Positions 254 through 29,100 are shown, counted from the stretch's first letter. The stretch is DNA of 55,469 nucleotides from Balneolaceae bacterium (GCA_007693395.1 REDS01000122.1:1-55469); one strand, 5' to 3'. Notes: generated by a model from the letters alone, not told the origin. A program made the numbers and translations.

Positions 254-2314
254 CTAATTCACGACAACTGTTTGCTCTGTACTTCCTGAACTTTCAGAAT
301 CATCTGATATTACCGTTACCGAATAGATATATCTTGATCCGGTTGTAACATTCCTGTCTAAATATCGGGTATCCGCTAACTCAAGTGTTTGAATAATTTG
401 TGCATTCTCTTCATTCACTCCCCTCCTGTAAATTCGATAACCTGTGGCACCGGCCTGCAAGGTTCGGTTCCAGCGCAGCTCAACACCGCCCGTAACATTT
501 CTTACACTTACCTGGCTTGGTGGAAGCAGTGTTGGCATTACCGGGCTGAATGATGATTCGTTAGATAGTGCACTCTCATGGCCAAAAACATCAACCGATG
601 AAATAGCGTAGTAATACGTAACTCCGTGTTGAACATCGATATCATCATAACCGAGGCCGGAAATTGCCTCATCCGTTAATCTCGTGTAATTATTGATCTC
701 TGCTGTTTCTGCAGCCATTCGTTCGGATGAAGGGTTCTGAATTGGCGTGGTGCCCCTGTAAACGTGATATCCGGTTACTGCATCATCATTTCTGCGCACA
801 TCGTTCCAGTTTATGCGAATTCGGTTTTGTTCAGCATATCCACTTACTCCTACCGGTGTAGGTGGCATCACAACCCTATTTGGCCTTAAAACAACCATAT
901 CAGAGAGTTCACTTTCCATTTCGCTTCTGCTGATTGCCTGCACGGCATATACATAATTAGTACGGCCATGCAGCTCTTCAGAATCATCTAAGAAAGTGGT
1001 TATCCCGTCCAGTGCATCAGATACAACCTCCATTTCCCCCAACGTGCTGGTTCCTCTGTAAACGTAGTAGGCAAAAAGATCTATCTCTGCATTCGGCTCC
1101 CAGTTGAGCCTTATTCCGGATCCTTCATGAGTGGCTGTAAGCCCTGCCGGTGGCGATGGTGCAATCCCTACATTTTGGAATGATCCGCTGGCAATGCCTG
1201 AAGGCATCTCAGTGCGTTCACGTATGGTTACAATCCGTAATTCGTAGTAGTAGGTTACATTTGGAATCAATCGGGAGTCGAGGTATTGGTTCTCCAAAAC
1301 ATTCAGAGTGTCTAACACCACAAAACCCTCACGTGAATCACGGGATCTGCGAATTTCAACACCGGTGATGTAAGATTTATTCGGAACGGGCTCCCACGAA
1401 AGCAATATCCCATCGGGCGTTTCCTCCACATCCACATCACCAATTAATGGCAGGTTTTCAAAATCAACGGAGATTACGGTTAATGTATCAGAAATTGGTC
1501 CGGGGTTTCTCAGCATATCTATAGGCTGAATATAGTAACGGTATGTTCTTTCAGGCTCTGCCTGTTCTTCCCATTCGTACATAATGATGTTTTCGGCTGT
1601 TCGCCGTGCAAACAGAAGGCCGGGCAACTCTTCAAAATCACCCTGCATATCCATTTGTCGGTATATTCGTGCATAGAATGCATCTTCTGATCCCTCAATT
1701 GGCGAAGCCCAGGCACCGCCAATTCTGTCATCAAGCTCTATTCTGCTTACCACCTGCGGGCTTAAAATCTGCGGTTCCCTGCCAGCTACCGATCTACCCT
1801 CTATAGATTCTGTGCTGCCATCAGTTAGTTGGTACTCTATCCTGTAGCTAACTTCTGTACCGGCTGGCAAATCTATTGTATCCTCATCCAGATATGCTGT
1901 GCCTAATGCCATCCACAATTCCGGCTCAAATGCTAAAAATCCATAAGCCGATAAATGCGGATTATTTTGAACATATTCCCACAGCTCAGCTTCATTGTCA
2001 CTTCCTGTTGAAAGAAGAAGTGACGAAAGCAGATCCGCCGAAAGCCGGCTGACAAAATCTTCAGATGATTGCGGAAAATTCGGTTCTGCAACTCTTTCAA
2101 ACTCTGTTGATTCGCCTGCTCTTCTCAATATGGTTGCTCCAATCCTGTTTTCAACAGGGTTTGATTCATCAAGAACGGCTTCTGTAACAAAAATCACGAA
2201 TCCGCGCTCTGTCCAGTTTACCAATCCGGAAATCTCTTCCGTTTCTTGTGAAAATGCGTGTTGAGGTATGCAAAGAAGCAACATTAAAATGGCTGCCTGT
2301 ATCTTATTTACCAT
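254..2314 (-). CDS. Secreted protein with about five fibronectin type III-like repeats
   Basis: A 686-residue protein when started at the ATG at 2314. An earlier in-frame ATG at 2362 lies inside the preceding gene and would put 16 charged residues before the signal peptide, so I reject it. Residues 1-23 form a Sec signal peptide (basic start, hydrophobic core, AFS|Q cleavage). After a unique region to about residue 185 come FN3-like units near 185-280, 290-380, 388-475, 488-590 and 598-686, each with the xxxLxW...GYxVYR...TYYYxIxxVD pattern. There is no catalytic motif, so it is probably an extracellular adhesion or scaffold protein. It follows the 1969-residue gene after 22 bases and is probably co-transcribed with it. 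No C-terminal sorting domain of the Por type is obvious. The specific function is unknown. Confidence 0.8.
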   Translation of the reverse strand: MVNKIQAAILMLLLCIPQHAFSQETEEISGLVNWTERGFVIFVTEAVLDESNPVENRIGATILRRAGESTEFERVAEPNFPQSSEDFVSRLSADLLSSLLLSTGSDNEAELWEYVQNNPHLSAYGFLAFEPELWMALGTAYLDEDTIDLPAGTEVSYRIEYQLTDGSTESIEGRSVAGREPQILSPQVVSRIELDDRIGGAWASPIEGSEDAFYARIYRQMDMQGDFEELPGLLFARRTAENIIMYEWEEQAEPERTYRYYIQPIDMLRNPGPISDTLTVISVDFENLPLIGDVDVEETPDGILLSWEPVPNKSYITGVEIRRSRDSREGFVVLDTLNVLENQYLDSRLIPNVTYYYELRIVTIRERTEMPSGIASGSFQNVGIAPSPPAGLTATHEGSGIRLNWEPNAEIDLFAYYVYRGTSTLGEMEVVSDALDGITTFLDDSEELHGRTNYVYAVQAISRSEMESELSDMVVLRPNRVVMPPTPVGVSGYAEQNRIRINWNDVRRNDDAVTGYHVYRGTTPIQNPSSERMAAETAEINNYTRLTDEAISGLGYDDIDVQHGVTYYYAISSVDVFGHESALSNESSFSPVMPTLLPPSQVSVRNVTGGVELRWNRTLQAGATGYRIYRRGVNEENAQIIQTLELADTRYLDRNVTTGSRYIYSVTVISDDSESSGSTEQTVVVN

Positions 2315-2336
2315 AATATCTTCTTTTTTTTTCTGC

Positions 2337-5300
2337 TTAATCATCATCATCGAGTAGTTCAAGTGAAGCGTTTAACCCACGGTTCGATGCATAATCAACC
2401 GTAACCCTTGCCCCGGCGCAGAGACTGCCACCATTTGGTACTGGCCCATAGAAACAGAGCTGTGTACTGCATCCCACATTGCAGTCTCCTATATACCCTG
2501 AAACCTGCCCGGTTGCCACGCCACTGAGTACCCAGCGATTGTTTGCATAGTTTCCGGAAAATGATCCCTGAGCTATAGCGTGCGCTCCTCCAATATCACC
2601 AAGTACCGCAACACTAACACTGCCGCCACCGGCCCAGTCACTGCCAATAAAAAAACCAAATGTGTTGCCAATCGGGTCAAAACTGACCTGACACTGCGTT
2701 CGGTTATAAAGATAACCGCAGCCTGTAATAGCACCCATCAGGAAAGTTCTGCAAACTTGTTCGTGTCGTCGGATTCCAAAAACACTCTCTACATCGAGGT
2801 GGAAGCCGGTAATAGTTCCATTTCGAATAAACTGATTATCTACAAAATCAGTGTAATACACGTAATCGGTTCCTGCTCCGGCCGGTACCTGCCATGCTGC
2901 CAGAATGTTTGCATTTGCATTAAAAATATCGACCATTTGAGCCTGGAACCGAGCTGCAACCATCCAATATGGGTCATCTCCGCCACTTAGTATAATTCTC
3001 GATTTTCCGGTTGCCTGAATGTTTACATCCTGAAGCTGGTCCATCTCAAGCCTCGCTTCAATATCGAACAGTGAGTTTGGAAGATCTATAATCAAATCTG
3101 CTTCAGCAATCTGCTGATTCATAACTGTCAATGCAGTGTATCCTGTTATTACCGGGCCGGGAGAAACTGTAACCCAAAACGGTTCAAGTGCCAAAACGCT
3201 TTCTGTGCCGGGGGCTACTGTTACAGCTCCGCTCAGAGTTACAGAAAGTCCGCCTGTTGCGTCACTAATTTCGAAGCCCCCACCAATGGACGTTATGGCT
3301 ACAGAACCAAGAAATACAGGCGGCAATCCGGTTTGAATATTTGCCCCCAGCGTAATCATGTCGTTTTCATTAAGATAGTAGAAGTTTATTGCGGCACTGA
3401 ATGGAGAGTTCGCGAGGTTCATCATTCCGCTTCCTCTAAAACCCTGCTCTTCTGCAGTGTTGATAAACTCTATACTCACAGCAGCTTCCCCTACAGCCCC
3501 AATGCTAAAACCAAGGCTTATCTGATCTACCGTTACCCCACCACCCTGGCGGTAGGTTAATCCGCCCGCCTGTGCCCGGATGAATGGTATGCCGTATAAT
3601 CTGAACTGGCCATCTACTTTAGCATGTGGTTCACCAATGTTGCTAAACATAATGCTGTTCAGCCTGAAATCTGCTATGCTAACAAAGTTCACGTAGAGAT
3701 TTGGAGCTACAGTAATGCTAAAATCACCGTCTGTTCTAACTATAAAATCGGGTATATATATCTCCTGATAGATTAAATCGGGCAGCCGAAGTGAAACTCC
3801 TCCTTTTAAGAAGTAAACGTCTTCATCTTCTACCTTCCCAAATGTAATTGGTTTACTGCTAATGGTTCGGATGTTTACAATATCGTATAGATTTATCCCC
3901 GTACCGGGCAACTGAAATGCCCCTCCAAATAATCTTTCCGGGGATATGGTTAAATCAGAAAATGTGACCTGAGCCTGAGCGGTGTTAGGCAGGTTAAGGT
4001 AAGCTCTGCCCCCTAAACTAAATCCGGTTTCTGATAAATATCCCGCTTCAATCTCAAAGCCCCAGGTAGAGAGCTGAATGGATGGTTTGGGGTTCAGCTG
4101 TATGCTTGCATTACGAACGGTACCATCTGTTCCTATCCACAGCTCTTCCAGTTGTAACCCAACCGTATCGAGCATCGGGATATTGCCTATCATCACACCT
4201 CCGCGAAAATAGATCCCATTCATCCTCACCATACTTTGAGATAGTGAAATCTGCATCGGGAAACCAAATATCCTGAAACCGGTACCGGCTGAGAAAATAT
4301 TCAGCTCAAAATCTGCCACAGCATCCGGATGAGGAAAACTGCCATCGCTTGTAATGAGCACTATATGATTTTCCTGACCATCGTTATCCGGTAAGATCTG
4401 TTCATCTTCATCAAGCAGTGTACCTACATCTGGCAATTGCAAATAATGTACCACACCTGCCTCCACTTCCCAGCCAAGTGCAGAGCGAAAAGCTCCTGCA
4501 TAATCAATCTGAACTTTACCTGCTATGACCCCATGCTGGTGAGGTTGTGAACGTTCCCGTACTTCCAGGCCATTGGCATTGATCAATTTTACATGCAGGT
4601 AGTCGAATAGTTTACCCCGTATTTCAGTTACAGCAGTTTGTACACTTCCTTCAACCGGTCTTAGCTCACCATTTTCCATGTATACACTTACACTGTAAAA
4701 CGGTATACGCATCCCTTCATTCACTGAAAAAAGTTCGTTTGATTGAATCCCGATAAATGCACCTGAAATTATTGTATCCCCATCAATTACAAGATGATCT
4801 ACCTCAATTTCAAAGCCCAGTAAGGTTGTGATATCGAATGGTGATTCTGTGAAGTTAAAGTTTACTTCCCGCGTCTCACCTACATCATAATTTCTTGTTT
4901 GCGAATCCCCGATGAACCCGGATTTCGATGCAACCAATGTCCACTCGCCATCAGGGATACCTGCAAGCAGATAGCTTCCGTCAGCCGCAGTAGTTGTGGT
5001 GATATCTTCCCTGCCCTCCACTCTTATTCTTGCACCTTCAACAGGCTCACCTGCTGCTGTAACAATTCCCTGAGCTGCTGCACCGGCCTCGAGCAGAATG
5101 GTTGCGTATGTAATCTCACCATTATCTGTTACGGTAACTTCCGTTGCGGCCGGCACAATCAGCACACCTTCCGCTGCTTTTGCCCGAACCGATACCGTAC
5201 CTCCCGGCGACTCATCAAAATAGATGACCCCTTCTTCGTTAGTAACTCCTGTCAAGCCATCTTCGCCAACTTCCACTGTTATATCTGAAAGCGGCATTTG

Positions 5301-8246
5301 TGAATCTGCTGCCAGAACGGTCACCTCAAGCCTGCCAACGGCCCGGCTCATAAAAATATCACCAAGATCTTCAATTACCTCAGAAACAGAGGCATCCTCC
5401 CCTAAAAGATTGCTGAAATAGGCAGCCATTGAGTCGAATTGCCCCTGAGAAACATTCAGATTTTGATTACTTATCACTGTTTGAGCAGCGGTATTCGTAA
5501 GCCCATGGGTCGTTTGTGTATCTCCGGTAAATCCAAGTCTGCCGGGATTAAATGTACCTGCTTCCTGCTGATTAATAGAAAATGATTGTGTATTGTTGAT
5601 TGAGTTAGCCCACTGACCTACAGCCCCTGCAGCTGTGATACCTGATGAAGCCGACCAATTTACAGTATCTGATACATCACTTTCGTCCAGTGTGATGGTT
5701 ATCGTTGTGTCAACATCGGTATGCCCAATCTTTCGTATCTCAAGCTGATGTGTGCCTGCGGTGTTTGCTGTGACAAACCGGCCATACGAATCACTCTGAA
5801 CCGGTGTACCGCCTTCCGCCCATCGCACTGTAGCATTTGCAACCGGTGTATCATTGTCACTCACAATTCTGCCAACAACGGTTACAAGAGATGCATCCAG
5901 CATAATCGGGTCGCGGGTAACTTTTTCCCCGGGTTGGCTGAGGGAAATTTCTTCCGTATAAGTGGCAAATCTGGCTCCGGAAATTCGCAGCAGGTAATCT
6001 TCGTCTTTTGGTTCTATATCTGAAATGGAAAACCGGCCATCATTATCTGTTACCGTTGTGTAAATATCGTTGTTTGAATCAGGCGAAATTAAAGCAACCG
6101 GCACATTAACTGCCGGTGATTGTGTATCACGACGGAGTACCCGGCCCTCCACCATCGGATTTGCCCGATTTATTTCAAACGTTTGCTCAATGATTACAAT
6201 CTCACCGGGCAGAATGGATGGGCGTGCTGAAAAAGGTAAAATTCTGCTGCTGTAACCGAGTGCAGAAATCCGGAGAAAGTAGCGATCATTAAATCCACTT
6301 TGGCGGGTAAAGAGTTTCGTAACCTGCCTCCCGCTCTCTGCAGCAGCTACTTTCACAAGTGCTGAACCGTTGAATCTCTCTTCTCCTTCAGAATCAGATA
6401 CATCGGGAAAGCCTTCCGATCGCAGGGCGGGGTGCTGCCTGTAAAACCGGCTCTCTCTGAAAACCTCAACAGTTGCATCAGATAATTCAAGATTGGTTTC
6501 GGAGTCGAGAACGGTTGCATCGAGCCGAAAAGTTAATGCTGTGCCCAAAATTGCTCCTACATCGTAATTTCTGGCAGAAGATGTACTTACCGCGATGGTT
6601 TTATCGTCAGGAAAATCGGCGTATGGCGACGTTACTTCGATCTCAATTTCTGTATGAGCAACCTGAACTGATTGAAAATCTCTCTCCCGAACTGATGCAG
6701 CAATATCCTCAGTAGAAGGCCGGTTAAATCTTCCTGTGGGCAATCCGGCTGAGGCCGGCTGACCCGTTCTTTGCTGAAACTGTGCCAGCTCGGACGGAGC
6801 GAATGTGAGCACAAAATTGCCCTCCTGATTTGAGAAGGCCGTTGCGAGAACATGCCGGGTTCCATCAGGTTTTACATATACTGCTCTAACCCTCGCTTTT
6901 TCATAAGGGAGGCTTGGCATATTTGTAAGAATATTGTTGACCTGTGCTGTTACTTGTGCAGGTTCCTGCGAAATATTCCCAACCCGAACGGAATTGGTAC
7001 GCCCACCACCGGAGACCGGTACAACCGCACTTTCTGTGAGCGCACCGCCGGTTGTTCTGAGTGAACCACTCTGCCTGAAGTTGGTATTTCCGGTATGCAG
7101 AGTCTGCCCTTCAAGTGATGCAGTTTCGGGCTGATAATTTGGGTCATCTATAGAGGCGATTAATGAAGGATTCGAGATTGCACCCAAACCGGCAGCGGAT
7201 GTAGGAATTACGGGCATAGAACTGAGGTGTCCTTCAGTTGCACTGTATTTCCATGAAACATTACCGGTTATTCTTGTAACCGGAATATTTTCAGTTATAG
7301 GGTCGGGATCAAAATCGGGTACTCCCGGGGGCTGCACACCAGTAAATGGTTCATCATCATCCGGCAGGGTACCAAAAGTGAATACGTGAATTTCACTTTT
7401 GCCATCGTTTTTAACAGGTATTTCACCATTTACATCGCGGGCCGTTATCTGCCAGGCGTAACTTCGTCCAAGTTCGAGCGGCAAATTATCGGCCGTGTAG
7501 GGAAAGAGATTGTTACTACGGGTAACTCGAGCGTGCTCTCTGTTGCTAAGCATTGCGTCGCCTGGATTTTGGCCATCATGCAGCTCAACCATCAAAAAAT
7601 CGTACTCGAACGATGATCCCGGAGGACCCATTACGGGAGACCATGAAAATACCGGTACGGTCATAGATTCGGCAAGAACAGTGTTATTGAAAGGTGCAAT
7701 CAAAATTGGAGGTTGCGGATAAATAACCGTGAATGTGCTAAATCCCGGTGCTCCCAATGGCACGCCATCTATCGTCAGCGGTTCAATGGTCATTGTATAA
7801 TTTCCTTCAGCAAAAGCACCGGTTTGATAGGCTTGCCGAATCCGGTTTGAAGGCAAATTATTCAGTACATCCGCCACAGTTGCCTGGAAAAAAACTTCCT
7901 GAGGGAAGGGGGTAAGATTGTTAAAGCCCGGATTCAACTGCCGAGTATCTGATATTTCATCAACCAAAACATCTCCGGCAAGCATTACCCGTACACGAAA
8001 TTGCACATCTACTGTACTGCCTCCGGTAACATTCGCCGAGACCATGTAGTTACCATTGAAAACATTTCTTTCAAAATCACTGATAAACGGCGAAGGTAAA
8101 ATAGGTGGTATTCCCGTTACGGTTACCTGAACCGTTGATTGCCCAACACTGCTGCTCGCACCAAAACAGAGCGATAAGAGCATCCCCATTAAGAGTGAGT
8201 AAATGTGTAAGCTTCCCTTTATTTTTTTCATTTTCTGTCGCTTCAT
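2337..8246 (-). CDS. Giant modular surface protein: TANFOR-like N-terminus, carboxypeptidase-regulatory-like repeats
   Basis: 1969 residues. The start at 8246 gives MKRQK; a second in-frame ATG at 8231 (MKKIKG) is equally plausible and leaves the signal peptide (to about residue 36, SVGQS) intact. Residues about 37-175 (VQVTVTGIPPILPSPFISDF onward) resemble the TANFOR domain seen in very large Bacteroidota proteins; this is from memory of the family. An Ig/FN3-like region follows at about 178-295. The middle third holds roughly five carboxypeptidase-regulatory-like (CarboxypepD_reg/Cna-B-like) units with the xVxGxVxxxxxxPxxGAxVxVxxxxxxTxTdxxGxFxxxxxxxG pattern. The C-terminal 750 residues are beta-rich and end in a Cys-containing segment (eight cysteines in the last 150 residues) and an acidic tail, DDDD. 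There is no enzyme motif. It lies between a beta-barrel gene 11 bases upstream and an FN3 gene downstream, which suggests an envelope-spanning or surface assembly. The function is unknown. Confidence 0.75.
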   Translation of the reverse strand: MKRQKMKKIKGSLHIYSLLMGMLLSLCFGASSSVGQSTVQVTVTGIPPILPSPFISDFERNVFNGNYMVSANVTGGSTVDVQFRVRVMLAGDVLVDEISDTRQLNPGFNNLTPFPQEVFFQATVADVLNNLPSNRIRQAYQTGAFAEGNYTMTIEPLTIDGVPLGAPGFSTFTVIYPQPPILIAPFNNTVLAESMTVPVFSWSPVMGPPGSSFEYDFLMVELHDGQNPGDAMLSNREHARVTRSNNLFPYTADNLPLELGRSYAWQITARDVNGEIPVKNDGKSEIHVFTFGTLPDDDEPFTGVQPPGVPDFDPDPITENIPVTRITGNVSWKYSATEGHLSSMPVIPTSAAGLGAISNPSLIASIDDPNYQPETASLEGQTLHTGNTNFRQSGSLRTTGGALTESAVVPVSGGGRTNSVRVGNISQEPAQVTAQVNNILTNMPSLPYEKARVRAVYVKPDGTRHVLATAFSNQEGNFVLTFAPSELAQFQQRTGQPASAGLPTGRFNRPSTEDIAASVRERDFQSVQVAHTEIEIEVTSPYADFPDDKTIAVSTSSARNYDVGAILGTALTFRLDATVLDSETNLELSDATVEVFRESRFYRQHPALRSEGFPDVSDSEGEERFNGSALVKVAAAESGRQVTKLFTRQSGFNDRYFLRISALGYSSRILPFSARPSILPGEIVIIEQTFEINRANPMVEGRVLRRDTQSPAVNVPVALISPDSNNDIYTTVTDNDGRFSISDIEPKDEDYLLRISGARFATYTEEISLSQPGEKVTRDPIMLDASLVTVVGRIVSDNDTPVANATVRWAEGGTPVQSDSYGRFVTANTAGTHQLEIRKIGHTDVDTTITITLDESDVSDTVNWSASSGITAAGAVGQWANSINNTQSFSINQQEAGTFNPGRLGFTGDTQTTHGLTNTAAQTVISNQNLNVSQGQFDSMAAYFSNLLGEDASVSEVIEDLGDIFMSRAVGRLEVTVLAADSQMPLSDITVEVGEDGLTGVTNEEGVIYFDESPGGTVSVRAKAAEGVLIVPAATEVTVTDNGEITYATILLEAGAAAQGIVTAAGEPVEGARIRVEGREDITTTTAADGSYLLAGIPDGEWTLVASKSGFIGDSQTRNYDVGETREVNFNFTESPFDITTLLGFEIEVDHLVIDGDTIISGAFIGIQSNELFSVNEGMRIPFYSVSVYMENGELRPVEGSVQTAVTEIRGKLFDYLHVKLINANGLEVRERSQPHQHGVIAGKVQIDYAGAFRSALGWEVEAGVVHYLQLPDVGTLLDEDEQILPDNDGQENHIVLITSDGSFPHPDAVADFELNIFSAGTGFRIFGFPMQISLSQSMVRMNGIYFRGGVMIGNIPMLDTVGLQLEELWIGTDGTVRNASIQLNPKPSIQLSTWGFEIEAGYLSETGFSLGGRAYLNLPNTAQAQVTFSDLTISPERLFGGAFQLPGTGINLYDIVNIRTISSKPITFGKVEDEDVYFLKGGVSLRLPDLIYQEIYIPDFIVRTDGDFSITVAPNLYVNFVSIADFRLNSIMFSNIGEPHAKVDGQFRLYGIPFIRAQAGGLTYRQGGGVTVDQISLGFSIGAVGEAAVSIEFINTAEEQGFRGSGMMNLANSPFSAAINFYYLNENDMITLGANIQTGLPPVFLGSVAITSIGGGFEISDATGGLSVTLSGAVTVAPGTESVLALEPFWVTVSPGPVITGYTALTVMNQQIAEADLIIDLPNSLFDIEARLEMDQLQDVNIQATGKSRIILSGGDDPYWMVAARFQAQMVDIFNANANILAAWQVPAGAGTDYVYYTDFVDNQFIRNGTITGFHLDVESVFGIRRHEQVCRTFLMGAITGCGYLYNRTQCQVSFDPIGNTFGFFIGSDWAGGGSVSVAVLGDIGGAHAIAQGSFSGNYANNRWVLSGVATGQVSGYIGDCNVGCSTQLCFYGPVPNGGSLCAGARVTVDYASNRGLNASLELLDDDD

Positions 8247-8257
8247 GTCATCTGGTT

Positions 8258-9994
8258 TTAAAATCGTTGCTGAAACTGGAACCGGCCTTCAAGCTCAGAA
8301 AAACCCTGCCCGTCTCCCTGAATGATGGAATTGTTCTGGGTGCGTAAATTCAGCTGAAAACTTGTTGAAGAAGTAACCCTGTACGATGCCGTAAAACTAC
8401 CGTTAAGCTGTGAGTTTTCAGTAACAATGGTATCAAAAGCGGATTCACTCTCTACGGTATTGAAGTTGGCTGTCATTGTTAAATTTGTATTCAGCCGCCC
8501 CTCAAGAAAAGCGTACCCGCCACCCAAAGATGCGCCGATTGTAGTAAATGTGCTTCCGGGTGATTCGCCCGTAACGTAATTCATTGAGCTGTTTACCGAT
8601 ATACCCGAAGTAAATGACACCGCATAACTTACCGTGCCGGTTATTGTGTGCGATTCATCCAGCATGGTACCATCAGCTGTGGGATAGCGAACATCAATTT
8701 CCTGGTAAATACCGGATACCGTTATGTTGTGTGTGGCACCATCTCCCATAATTACCAGGCTCGGAAACAACTGGTAAATATGAGATATCTGTTCATGATC
8801 GCGCTGTCCGCTTTCACTTTCTGAGGTTACTGAATACGCTTCAAATCGTGAGTAACCACCACCAAGTGTAAATGCATCTGTTACCCGCGCAATGGTATTT
8901 ACCCCAATATTATTTCGCTTTTGGGTAGAGAGGCGATTCCCAAGCAGGTTATCCTCACTCAGGGAGAGTGTGCCGTCTATGGAGAGCCTTCCGCTAAGCA
9001 GATTAAACCGCGGCTGGAGAGATATTGTTTGCTGATCATCCCGTAACTGCCTGAGGCCGATGCTTTCGAAGCCCGGCATAATTCGCTCAAACTCGGCACG
9101 CATTGAAAAATAGTCGATATTTAGCATTGAGTGGGCTTTGCCGGCATATGTAACTCTTGTACTGTTTCTTGGTGAAAAAAGATCTACCACAAATCCCGGT
9201 ACGCCTGCTTCATCAACCGATAGAAGCGGGCTGTTTAAATCTCTTGTATAAGCTGAAACTGTGGTTTCTGCACCAATTTTAAAAGCCTCATCAAAAAACG
9301 AAAGCTGAAATTTTGGTGTGAGGCCGTAATTTTCAGCTGCAAGTATCTGTGTGCCAACCAGGCCTTCTCTGAGGGATGCACGAAGAGAATCGGAAAATGA
9401 GCTTTGGAGATCGCGCCCGTAAAACCCGGAGAGACCAAAGTTGTTTGTTGAAGGATTGCCCGCTCCGAATGCAAAAGCATAAAGCCATCGCTCATAAGCG
9501 AGCTGGCGTGGGCGATCATCTTCAATCTCGGTTACCGCCCGGTTTATCCGGCCAAAGCTTAGGTTCAAAAAAATATTACCCGGAGTAAGCCGCAGCTCTC
9601 CTCCACGAATTTGAGTACCGCGAACCCCAAATTGCGAATAGGCCGGGGTTACATCACCCGCAGAGAGTGCAATCCATCGCCAGCTGCCGTTAAAAGCTAT
9701 CCGGTTCATATTCTGGCGGAAGCGGTTATCATCTGTATTGTAGTAAATATCCAGCCCCGAGCTAAATCCTAATACCGAGTACTGAACATTGCCCTCTAAA
9801 ATGCCCCCAAAAGGTTCTCTTCGCTGAATTTCGCTCGAGGTGGTATAAGCATGAGTTTGCAGCCTGATATTTCCATCAAGTGTGTAAGCTTCAATATCTG
9901 TATCGCCGATTGTCTGGGCATTCACTCCGCTTGCCAGTGCAATACAGATTCCAAGCTGCAGGGCTACTATAGAGATTCTATAGTTTTTGTTCAT
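8258..9994 (-). CDS. Outer-membrane beta-barrel-like protein
   Basis: 578 residues from the ATG at 9994. An upstream in-frame start at 10030 would add 12 polar residues before the signal peptide. A Sec signal peptide (to about residue 27, ASGVNAQ) is followed by long runs of alternating hydrophobic and polar residues with many Tyr, Phe, Asn and Gly, and the protein ends in phenylalanine (FQFQQRF), as outer-membrane barrels usually do. There is no TonB box, plug or OmpA peptidoglycan domain. It is the first gene of the three-gene minus-strand cluster and ends 11 bases before the giant protein. Inferred role: outer-membrane anchor or export channel for that protein. No family name recognised. 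Confidence 0.7.
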   Translation of the reverse strand: MNKNYRISIVALQLGICIALASGVNAQTIGDTDIEAYTLDGNIRLQTHAYTTSSEIQRREPFGGILEGNVQYSVLGFSSGLDIYYNTDDNRFRQNMNRIAFNGSWRWIALSAGDVTPAYSQFGVRGTQIRGGELRLTPGNIFLNLSFGRINRAVTEIEDDRPRQLAYERWLYAFAFGAGNPSTNNFGLSGFYGRDLQSSFSDSLRASLREGLVGTQILAAENYGLTPKFQLSFFDEAFKIGAETTVSAYTRDLNSPLLSVDEAGVPGFVVDLFSPRNSTRVTYAGKAHSMLNIDYFSMRAEFERIMPGFESIGLRQLRDDQQTISLQPRFNLLSGRLSIDGTLSLSEDNLLGNRLSTQKRNNIGVNTIARVTDAFTLGGGYSRFEAYSVTSESESGQRDHEQISHIYQLFPSLVIMGDGATHNITVSGIYQEIDVRYPTADGTMLDESHTITGTVSYAVSFTSGISVNSSMNYVTGESPGSTFTTIGASLGGGYAFLEGRLNTNLTMTANFNTVESESAFDTIVTENSQLNGSFTASYRVTSSTSFQLNLRTQNNSIIQGDGQGFSELEGRFQFQQRF

Positions 9995-10179: not shown

Positions 10180-10725
10180 TTAATCATCCAAAACTGCGCG
10201 GAACTCACCCGTTACGGTAAGCGGGTCGATAGGGGTTAAATCAGTATCAGCACCACGTGATGCTGTAAACTCAAAGCTTCCGGTAATCACATTGTTAGAA
10301 ACGGATTCAATTACCAGCACACCTGTAGCACCGGCTAGATCTGAAATGTAATGGTGATCCCCAAAAAAACTGCCTCCCAGCCTGCGGTTTACATAGTCTG
10401 CGCGGAAGTCCTCACGTTCAAGATTACCGATGGTGTAGGTACCCGGGGATGGAACTGTAACGCCCCCGTCGAAATCAATTTTGGCTATATCCACATCAAA
10501 ATTGTCATTATCCTGCCCACCCAGCAGAATAGTAAATTCATGGTTTTGGTTAGTGTAACGAGCTGCACCCTTGTGCTCATCATTTACAGAACCGGTAACG
10601 GTTATCGCAGAACGGCCAATACCAATGCCGTTTTCGTCTAAATCAGGCCCATTGGTGCTGTCGGTACATCCTGTCCCGATTGCAAACATCAATATAAAAA
10701 GGGTAGTAAGTGTTTGTTTTTTCAT
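10180..10725 (-). CDS. Small lipoprotein, unknown function
   Basis: 181 residues from the ATG at 10725; a longer in-frame start at 10743 would precede a complete lipoprotein signal and is rejected. Residues 1-20 form a signal with lipobox IGTGC, lipidated at Cys20, followed by a flexible acidic linker (TDSTNGPDLDENG). The mature part is predicted all-beta and has segments of the type HEFTILLGGQ and VTGSFEFTASRG, reminiscent of the DUF6252-like or calycin-like small lipoproteins of Bacteroidota; the assignment is not firm. It probably stands alone: 185 bases separate it from the barrel gene downstream and 154 from the gene upstream, all on the same strand. Confidence 0.7.
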   Translation of the reverse strand: MKKQTLTTLFILMFAIGTGCTDSTNGPDLDENGIGIGRSAITVTGSVNDEHKGAARYTNQNHEFTILLGGQDNDNFDVDIAKIDFDGGVTVPSPGTYTIGNLEREDFRADYVNRRLGGSFFGDHHYISDLAGATGVLVIESVSNNVITGSFEFTASRGADTDLTPIDPLTVTGEFRAVLDD

Positions 10726-10879
10726 AGTAATTAGCAGATACATACGTTTATATTCAACTACAGATTTTATTCACTAAGCATATCATTAAAGTGATGGAAA
10801 GTGTCGGGAATCATCTCTATCATAGTATTAAGGCAGATGCCCCGGACGCATTATCAATTAATTGATCATACAGGTTCCA

Positions 10880-27717: not shown

Positions 27718-28977
27718 CTACAGAGCTGGGTTCATCACTTTGCCCAAAAAGAGATTTGTGCCGCTTTCCCGTTCATGGATGATGAAGACAAAAGGCCTGT
27801 CAACAATCATTTGTGGCGGCATTGAAGTAATACCAATGCCCACACTCGTTACAGCGGCAGCCTCTGTTCCCTCCTCATCAACCCGGATAAATGTTTTGTG
27901 TTTAACATGGTCGATATACAGATTTTGTGGTGACACATCGGCAATACCTTTCAGATTGGCTTCCCACTCATCAAAAGCCTTCACAATTCCCATGGATTTC
28001 AGAATATCATTGTATTCTATTTCGTACTCAAACTCAAACTTTGGCAACTGAAGCGTAATTTCCCTGGAATCAACGGACATATTTGCTCTCCAAGATGCAA
28101 GGTTACCGGCTGTAATGTGCTCATCAATAAATTGGTTAATCGGCATATCGGCATCTGCCGGTATCAAAACAGTCATTGAAAAAAGGCTGTCGCCATAGGG
28201 AATTTCAACCATTTGTACATTCTCTGAGAAATAGAGTGCAAATTTACCCTCCTGGTGCATCATGTCTGTCTGTACAGTTCCGCCGGTTTCTAACTTGAAC
28301 TCTGCTCTCCGGGTATCATCGGTATCGAACGGGCGCAGCCAGTCTCCCTTAAAATAGAGCGCATTGATGAGATACATAACAATATGTGGTTCAATCTCCT
28401 CAATAATTTCCTCAATCAATCCTTCCGTGTTCTCTTTAACCCATGCATTAATCACATCGGGTGCTGCCGGATCACTAAAATCGAGGCCTTCAATGCGTGC
28501 ATCAAAGAATTCTCTCATTTTGTCAAGAAATTCCTCTTCGACGGGCAGCCCGTTTCTGTGCCAGATGGAGTTGGCAATTTTTATTGTCACACTGCGATCG
28601 GCTGTTGTAAGCAGCTCCGTAAGCGACTTAAAAGCATTGTTAATCTCATCTATCTCCAGTCCGTTCAGAAAAAGAGCTTCACGCATTTCATCAAATGTAT
28701 CGCCCTGTGCACCGTTCAGTGTCATAGCAAGCGCCATTGAGATACTTAAGGGAGAGATCATCAGGTTCTCTTCATCGCTATCGAACGCTACCGTTTGTTT
28801 AAAAATTTCGTAGCTGAATTGCTGATCTGCTTCAATCAGCAGCTTCTCCTGTGGTGTTAAATCACGCGGAAGCTCCCCTGATGGGCCATCGGGCCCAACT
28901 ATACTCTTACTGCAGGCTATAGCCAGGATGAAAATGAAAATTGCGCTAATTGTATACCATTTATATGCTGTAAACAT
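27718..28977 (-). CDS. Serpin lipoprotein (serine protease inhibitor)
   Basis: 419 residues from the ATG at 28977; TTG/GTG codons just upstream are not needed. Signal with lipobox LAIAC, Cys22, so it is probably outer-membrane anchored. Serpin landmarks: NLMISPLSISMALAMTLNGA, the shutter region, NALYFKGDWLRPF, MHQEGKF, and the C-terminal DRPFVFIIHE...LFLGKVMNPAL. The hinge is DEEGTEAAAVTSVG. Counting as in alpha-1-antitrypsin, the reactive centre is Gly-Ile-Thr|Ser-Met-Pro-Pro, P1 Thr and P1' Ser, and the small-residue hinge indicates an inhibitory serpin. It sits on the opposite strand between hisA and hisF. Target protease unknown. Confidence 0.95.
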   Translation of the reverse strand: MFTAYKWYTISAIFIFILAIACSKSIVGPDGPSGELPRDLTPQEKLLIEADQQFSYEIFKQTVAFDSDEENLMISPLSISMALAMTLNGAQGDTFDEMREALFLNGLEIDEINNAFKSLTELLTTADRSVTIKIANSIWHRNGLPVEEEFLDKMREFFDARIEGLDFSDPAAPDVINAWVKENTEGLIEEIIEEIEPHIVMYLINALYFKGDWLRPFDTDDTRRAEFKLETGGTVQTDMMHQEGKFALYFSENVQMVEIPYGDSLFSMTVLIPADADMPINQFIDEHITAGNLASWRANMSVDSREITLQLPKFEFEYEIEYNDILKSMGIVKAFDEWEANLKGIADVSPQNLYIDHVKHKTFIRVDEEGTEAAAVTSVGIGITSMPPQMIVDRPFVFIIHERESGTNLFLGKVMNPAL

Positions 28978-29100
28978 CTGTTTCACCAAATCTCTGTTTA
29001 AAGTGGATGAATCCCGTTGATTTATACTATATACACATAAGAAGTTGCATATACCTATGTGTCAGAGCAAACTATATATAATCTTTCTGATTATTCTTTT

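What the first reader, a model, noticed from the sequence alone, without database searches (positions are those of the whole stretch)
254..9994. Three-gene envelope cluster: beta-barrel, 1969-residue TANFOR-like protein, FN3-repeat protein
Three adjacent minus-strand genes with gaps of 11 and 22 bases encode an outer-membrane barrel, a giant modular protein and a secreted five-FN3 protein. From memory, TANFOR-domain giants of Bacteroidota also tend to sit beside barrel and FN3 proteins. No function has been assigned to this trio to my knowledge. The giant protein lacks enzyme motifs, has about five carboxypeptidase-regulatory-like modules and a Cys-rich end, and so looks like a structural surface fibre or matrix component presented by the barrel.
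Basis: partly seen in the sequence, partly recalled or inferred. Interest (0 to 1): 0.66.

Follow-up and report, generated by a model that had tools for sequence, protein, structure and literature searches.

The report
Outer-membrane barrel paired with TANFOR giant
Three neighbouring genes encode an unnamed outer-membrane barrel, a giant exported protein and an FN3-repeat protein; the same trio recurs across Bacteroidota, and in some genomes the barrel is fused to the giant's start domain, so the barrel is probably the missing membrane partner of the TANFOR protein family, some of which are bacterial toxins.

Summary
Three minus-strand ORFs (barrel 8258-9994, giant 2337-8246, FN3 protein 254-2314; gaps 11 and 22) form one cassette. 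The giant's N-terminus does not match the TANFOR model TIGR02542, but profile-profile comparison with TIGR02542-positive proteins links them (97.9 %, E 3e-13). The own genome holds two further complete trios and two contig ends that look like a fourth. In 296 Bacteroidota genomes, 46 of 49 with the giant's N-terminal domain carry the barrel (85 of 296 overall). Of 66 N-terminal-domain places, 49 lie within 20 kb of a barrel, all on the same strand. The barrel matches no Pfam or NCBIfam family. In another bacterial family, ten ORFs fuse a TANFOR-type domain to this barrel. The predicted barrel (about 23-26 strands, moderate confidence) is closest to MtrB. The window's giant is conserved end to end, without toxin domain or T9SS tail, so it is not a polymorphic toxin. 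Best reading: a surface or outer-membrane assembly in which the giant docks through its TANFOR domain on a dedicated barrel, with FN3 as accessory; a related cassette carries a toxin. Export route (T9SS or the barrel) and physiological role are unresolved.

The parts
8258..9994 (-). Outer-membrane beta-barrel, 578 aa, signal peptide, C-terminal Phe; founding sequence of an unnamed barrel family
   Evidence: ORF; no Pfam/NCBIfam match; AlphaFold barrel; closest fold MtrB; homologues in 85 of 296 Bacteroidota genomes
2337..8246 (-). Giant exported protein, 1969 aa
   Evidence: ORF; paralogues in own genome; conserved end to end in relatives
7692..8135 (-). Divergent TANFOR domain (residues 38-185 of the giant)
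   Evidence: hhalign with TIGR02542-positive proteins 97.9 %, E 3.4e-13; phmmer hits to L088 and L092; TIGR02542 itself no match
7347..7691 (-). FN3-like domain that follows the TANFOR domain (residues 186-300); among the best conserved parts of the giant
   Evidence: conservation; the same order is seen in the TANFOR relatives
4836..6149 (-). CarboxypepD_reg / prealbumin-like beta-sandwich modules (residues about 700-1137)
   Evidence: Pfam PF13620 1.7e-28, PF13715 3.4e-23, PF17802 1.1e-5
2340..4859 (-). C-terminal all-beta half (residues 1130-1969); also in L142 and L081
   Evidence: HMM; AlphaFold all-beta but pLDDT 54
2418..2753 (-). Seven-Cys C-terminal module (residues 1832-1943)
   Evidence: Cys conserved in 7 relatives, with one gap at one position
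254..2314 (-). Exported FN3-repeat protein, 686 aa
   Evidence: ORF; Pfam fn3 2.3e-13, three stretches; recurrent third gene

Best explanation
The three genes are one cassette for an outer-membrane or cell-surface assembly. All three proteins go through Sec (inferred from signal peptides). The barrel inserts in the outer membrane. The giant's N-terminal TANFOR domain docks on the barrel, most likely on its periplasmic side or in its wide lumen, so that the barrel anchors the giant and lets it be presented; the FN3 protein is an accessory. The window's version is a structural (adhesin- or matrix-like) variant. A related cassette (L100) carries a toxin domain at the giant's end. Shown here: the conserved trio, the TANFOR kinship, and natural TANFOR-barrel fusions elsewhere. 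Inferred: physical docking, surface exposure and structural role. Open: whether T9SS or the barrel itself moves the giant across the outer membrane; I lean to T9SS, because every barrel-bearing genome sampled has it, but this may be shared ancestry.
For: Own-genome paralogous trios. Co-occurrence in 46 of 49 genomes; 49 of 66 N-terminal-domain places within 20 kb of a barrel, all on the same strand, 37 with the barrel less than 2 kb upstream. 36 of 59 surveyed barrels are followed directly by the giant, 28 of those then by FN3. The three also stay together in another order, giant-FN3-barrel (L101, L147-L150). Two TIGR02542-positive genomes, G249 and G289, have the barrel directly upstream of the TANFOR gene. 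In one family, ten ORFs hold TANFOR-type domain and barrel in one chain. TANFOR kinship. End-to-end conservation and no toxin domain. Barrel model and MtrB-like fold. SprA in all 85 barrel genomes and 27 CTD proteins in the own genome.
Against: The three cassette proteins carry no T9SS CTD, so T9SS export would need an unknown signal. Two genomes (G049, G186) have a weak N-terminal-domain hit but no detectable barrel, and several places have no barrel nearby. Many barrel genomes lack a detected N-terminal domain, partly because weak hits include a distant 800-950 aa cousin family. Co-occurrence and mirror-tree values do not correct for phylogeny. No complex was modelled.
Confidence: 0.55

Rival explanations
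1. The giant is an ordinary T9SS cargo and the barrel is only a surface anchor, like PorP/SprF for type B CTD cargo. The TANFOR domain is a general export or sorting module, in line with the T9SS hypothesis of Jana et al. 2020.
For: Barrel and N-terminal domain occur only in SprA-positive genomes of the sample. T9SS is present in the own genome. Type B cargo genes cluster with PorP/SprF barrels that are thought to anchor them (PMC10202324). TANFOR neighbourhoods are enriched in T9SS cargo (PMC7073777).
Against: No CTD on giant or FN3 protein; the barrel is not PorP/SprF by HMM and is about twice its size (size of PorP/SprF from memory); the co-occurrence is confounded by phylogeny.
Confidence: 0.3
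2. The barrel itself is the exit channel: a dedicated two-partner-like secretion route for TANFOR proteins, independent of T9SS.
For: Barrel gene first and directly next to the cargo; fusions with the TANFOR-type domain N-terminal to the barrel, like an autotransporter layout; a wide barrel with MtrB, usher and LptD among its fold neighbours, a size class that includes secretion channels (PMC7198977).
Against: No POTRA or usher domain match; all carrier genomes also have SprA; the barrel fold alone does not show transport.
Confidence: 0.2
3. The giant stays in the periplasm as a long beta-rich bridge to the barrel, for example for lipid transfer as in TamA-TamB.
For: The C-terminal 840 residues are predicted almost all beta with weak strand alternation; OM barrel partner; no export signal known.
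Against: No TamB/AsmA Pfam match; cleavable-type signal peptide and no inner-membrane helix; the model is too poor to assign a fold; a toxin-bearing relative argues for export.
Confidence: 0.12
4. A polymorphic toxin of the TANFOR class with an unrecognised C-terminal toxin (the Cys-rich end).
For: TANFOR kinship; a related protein, L100, carries a colicin/pyocin DNase domain.
Against: The C-terminus is as conserved as the rest; no toxin domain; the next gene is the FN3 protein, not an immunity gene.
Confidence: 0.06

Closest known systems
TANFOR-domain polymorphic toxins of Bacteroidetes (TIGR02542; Jana et al. 2020, PMC7073777)
   Same: Homologous N-terminal domain behind a signal peptide, then FN3-like domains; FN3 genes enriched nearby; T9SS-bearing genomes
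   Different: Window giant is below the TIGR02542 model, has no toxin and no immunity gene, and is conserved to its end; no barrel is in that paper's table of enriched domains
T9SS type B CTD cargo with PorP/SprF barrel (PMC10202324)
   Same: Large exported protein encoded beside a cognate OM barrel, in T9SS genomes
   Different: No CTD; barrel unrelated by HMM and about twice as long; recognition would be N-terminal, not C-terminal
MtrB of the Mtr complex (PDB 6r2q chain B)
   Same: Best fold match of the barrel: Foldseek E 1.1e-11, next 1.1e-6; VIA Z 19.3, 456 residues, rmsd 6.0, next row 15.8
   Different: 9-10 % identity, no Pfam match, no haem motifs in the trio
Two-partner secretion / autotransporters (T5SS)
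   Same: Barrel plus large exported protein; fusions with N-terminal domain and C-terminal barrel
   Different: No POTRA, FHA-type or autotransporter match

Membership tests
TANFOR domain (TIGR02542) | Match to the TIGR02542 model | tested here: not met
   No match at E<=1 for P0002 and none in the own genome
TANFOR domain (TIGR02542) | Homology of the N-terminal domain to TIGR02542-positive proteins | tested here: met
   hhalign 97.9 %, E 3.4e-13; direct phmmer 5.7e-13 and 1.3e-12 to L088 and L092
TANFOR domain (TIGR02542) | N-terminal position after a signal peptide, followed by FN3-type domain in a large protein | tested here: met
TANFOR polymorphic toxins | C-terminal toxin domain | tested here: not met
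   Pfam and NCBIfam scans show no toxin domain; PADLOC no match
TANFOR polymorphic toxins | Variable C-terminus and downstream immunity gene | tested here: not met
   Five related giants 42-63 % identical with no drop at the end; next gene FN3 protein
T9SS cargo | C-terminal CTD (TIGR04183 / TIGR04131) | tested here: not met
   No match on P0001-P0003, nor on the paralogous proteins scanned
T9SS cargo | T9SS in the genome | tested here: met
   SprA_N 4e-101, 27 CTD matches
T9SS cargo | Export depends on SprA/PorLM | not testable with these tools
   needs deletion strains
PorP/SprF barrels | Family HMM match | tested here: not met
   P0001 and relatives match nothing relevant
MtrB/PioB | Pfam family match and multihaem cytochrome partners | tested here: not met
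   No match at E<=1; no CxxCH in the trio
MtrB/PioB | 26-strand barrel fold | tested here: inconclusive
   Best fold match, but model pLDDT 71.6 with residues 91-138 poor
TpsB/T5SS | POTRA domains or autotransporter barrel | tested here: not met
   No Pfam match

The most novel reading that the evidence does not exclude
The unnamed barrel and the TANFOR domain form a distinct outer-membrane export and presentation system of Bacteroidota: the TANFOR domain is the address, the barrel the exit or anchor, and the cargo behind it is interchangeable (structural giants of about 2000 or 4000 residues, or toxins).
Probability: 0.22. Interest if true: 0.85.

Novelty: new variant of a known kind. Interest (0 to 1): 0.6.

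Why it matters
How TANFOR proteins, including antibacterial toxins, cross or attach to the outer membrane is an open question; the 2020 study hypothesised T9SS from neighbourhood statistics built on known domains and could not see a barrel that no library names. A conserved, sometimes fused barrel partner gives that question a concrete, testable component, and adds an unnamed, widespread OM protein family to the Bacteroidota envelope.

Tried and rejected
TIGR02542 directly: no match. PDB by sequence: nothing meaningful for P0001 (one chance hit, E 1.1) and nothing for P0002. Giant C-terminal half: AlphaFold pLDDT 54; VIA top row ApoB-100, Z 11.7 with rmsd 37.5, then assorted OM barrels; not used as a fold assignment. 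Electron conduit by analogy with MtrB: rejected, no haem motifs. Defence system: no PADLOC match. Barrel alignments A3 and A4 were too diverse for the genome-contig scan; A5 worked and gave 10 loci. TANFOR literature: one relevant paper found in the library. Mirror-tree correlation r 0.925 is reported but not used as proof, as species phylogeny alone could give it.

Full report
Observation. The three ORFs are as described: barrel 9994-8258, giant 8246-2337 (1969 aa), FN3 protein 2314-254, gaps 11 and 22. All start with a Sec-type signal sequence by eye and none has a later transmembrane helix by hydropathy. Pfam gives the giant three significant CarboxypepD_reg stretches and a prealbumin-like one, and the third protein FN3 domains; the barrel matches nothing in Pfam, NCBIfam or PADLOC. 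The FN3 gene ends 253 bases from the contig end, so what follows it is unknown.

Same genome. The genome (3.56 Mb, 227 contigs) has a second full trio on C104 (giant 43 % identical over its length) and a third on C96 with a 4071-aa giant that shares only about the first 300 residues. Two contig ends, C73 (barrel) and C209 (giant end, FN3, TPR protein), look like the halves of a fourth. This joining is inferred.

TANFOR kinship. TIGR02542 does not match the giant. But phmmer with the giant's residues 37-300 finds proteins encoded next to barrels that are TIGR02542 hits (L088 5.7e-13, L092 1.3e-12), and hhalign of 15 window-like domains against 9 TIGR02542-positive ones gives 97.9 % and E 3.4e-13. 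So the domain is a divergent TANFOR domain. TANFOR proteins have been described as polymorphic toxins whose neighbourhoods are enriched in FN3 and T9SS cargo genes (PMC7073777). That paper's table of enriched domains contains no barrel.

Conserved trio. In 296 genomes of the phylum the barrel (single-sequence search) is in 85, the N-terminal domain (profile A1) in 49, both in 46. Of 66 N-terminal-domain places, 49 are within 20 kb of a barrel, all on the same strand, 37 with the barrel under 2 kb upstream. All 8 genomes with a TIGR02542 hit have the barrel. In 60 fetched regions plus the own-genome copies, 59 barrels were found; 36 are followed directly by the giant and 28 of these then by FN3. 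Elsewhere the order is giant-FN3-barrel (L101, L147, L148) or giant-FN3-further gene-barrel (L149, L150), so the three stay together although the order changes. Among named genomes the nearest carriers are Balneolaceae MAGs and Rhodohalobacter sulfatireducens WB101. These counts do not correct for shared ancestry.

Fusion. In family f40, ten ORFs of 871-1027 residues (L151-L160) hold a TANFOR-type domain followed by the barrel; in most of them a second, separate N-terminal-domain gene lies next to it. A barrel with an even strand number has both ends in the periplasm (general knowledge), which would put the TANFOR domain on that side unless it is threaded through.

Barrel. AlphaFold on 10 sequences gives pLDDT 71.6 with about 23 clear strands; residues 91-138, which hold the conserved GDVxPxYS...GG motif, are poor. 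Foldseek's best match is MtrB (E 1.1e-11, next 1.1e-6) and VIA gives Z 19.3 over 456 residues (next 15.8). MtrB is a 26-strand barrel that encloses a protein partner and is similar in size to LptD and the usher FimD (PMC7198977). The trio has no haem motifs. I use this only as a size and shape clue.

Giant. In five related giants identity is spread over the whole length with no drop at the end, unlike polymorphic toxins. The last 840 residues are all-beta in a low-confidence model, and the seven mature Cys cluster there. That C-terminal half recurs in G212 and G013. Of 25 C-termini of related proteins scanned, only L100 has a recognisable toxin domain (Col-Pyo_DNase 1e-41).

T9SS. SprA is present in all 85 barrel genomes against 143 of the other 211, and the own genome has 27 CTD matches, but the trio has no CTD. 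The nearest known arrangement is type B cargo with PorP/SprF barrels (PMC10202324).

Conclusion. Shown: a conserved barrel-TANFOR-FN3 cassette, TANFOR kinship of the giant, natural TANFOR-barrel fusions, and a giant in the window that has no recognised toxin domain and is conserved end to end. Inferred: the barrel is the docking or anchoring partner of TANFOR proteins, and the window's copy is a structural surface variant. Not decided: export route and physiological role.

Noticed in passing
L016 2-511 and 18840-20000; L017 367-3610; also L060-L062, L070-L072, L076-L078, L124, L126, L127: Many cassettes in related genomes lie beside an ECF sigma factor gene and/or a Ser/Thr kinase gene, usually upstream and divergent; no such gene was seen beside the window's own cassette.
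   Followed up: partly
L016 553-2571; L018 2986-5010; L065, L066, L067, L069, L070, L080, L083, L086: A TPR protein with a signal sequence is a recurrent fourth gene, mostly in cassettes with 4000-residue giants.
   Followed up: partly
L100 8925-15707: TANFOR protein ending in a colicin/pyocin-type DNase, followed by a 66-aa ORF that resembles a colicin immunity protein by eye, then a truncated barrel gene (336 aa).
   Followed up: partly
L116 13678-16392; L117 1592-3985; hits of 797-933 aa: A distant cousin barrel with N-terminal extension is found in most of the cassette-free Balneolaceae genomes checked; in L117 it is followed by a CHASE2-adenylate/guanylate cyclase gene.
   Followed up: partly
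L132, L133, L134: Giants of about 6400 residues with the TANFOR-type domain but no barrel within 20 kb.
   Followed up: no
window 10180-10743; L127 14472-15062; L015 13833-15291: Small putative lipoproteins of about 187-230 aa sit beside several of the cassettes, upstream in the window and downstream in L127 and L015.
   Followed up: no
window 13929-54490: The rest of the window looks ordinary by eye: peptide chain release factor 3, RecN, His and Ilv/Leu biosynthesis genes, a serpin at 27718-28989.
   Followed up: no
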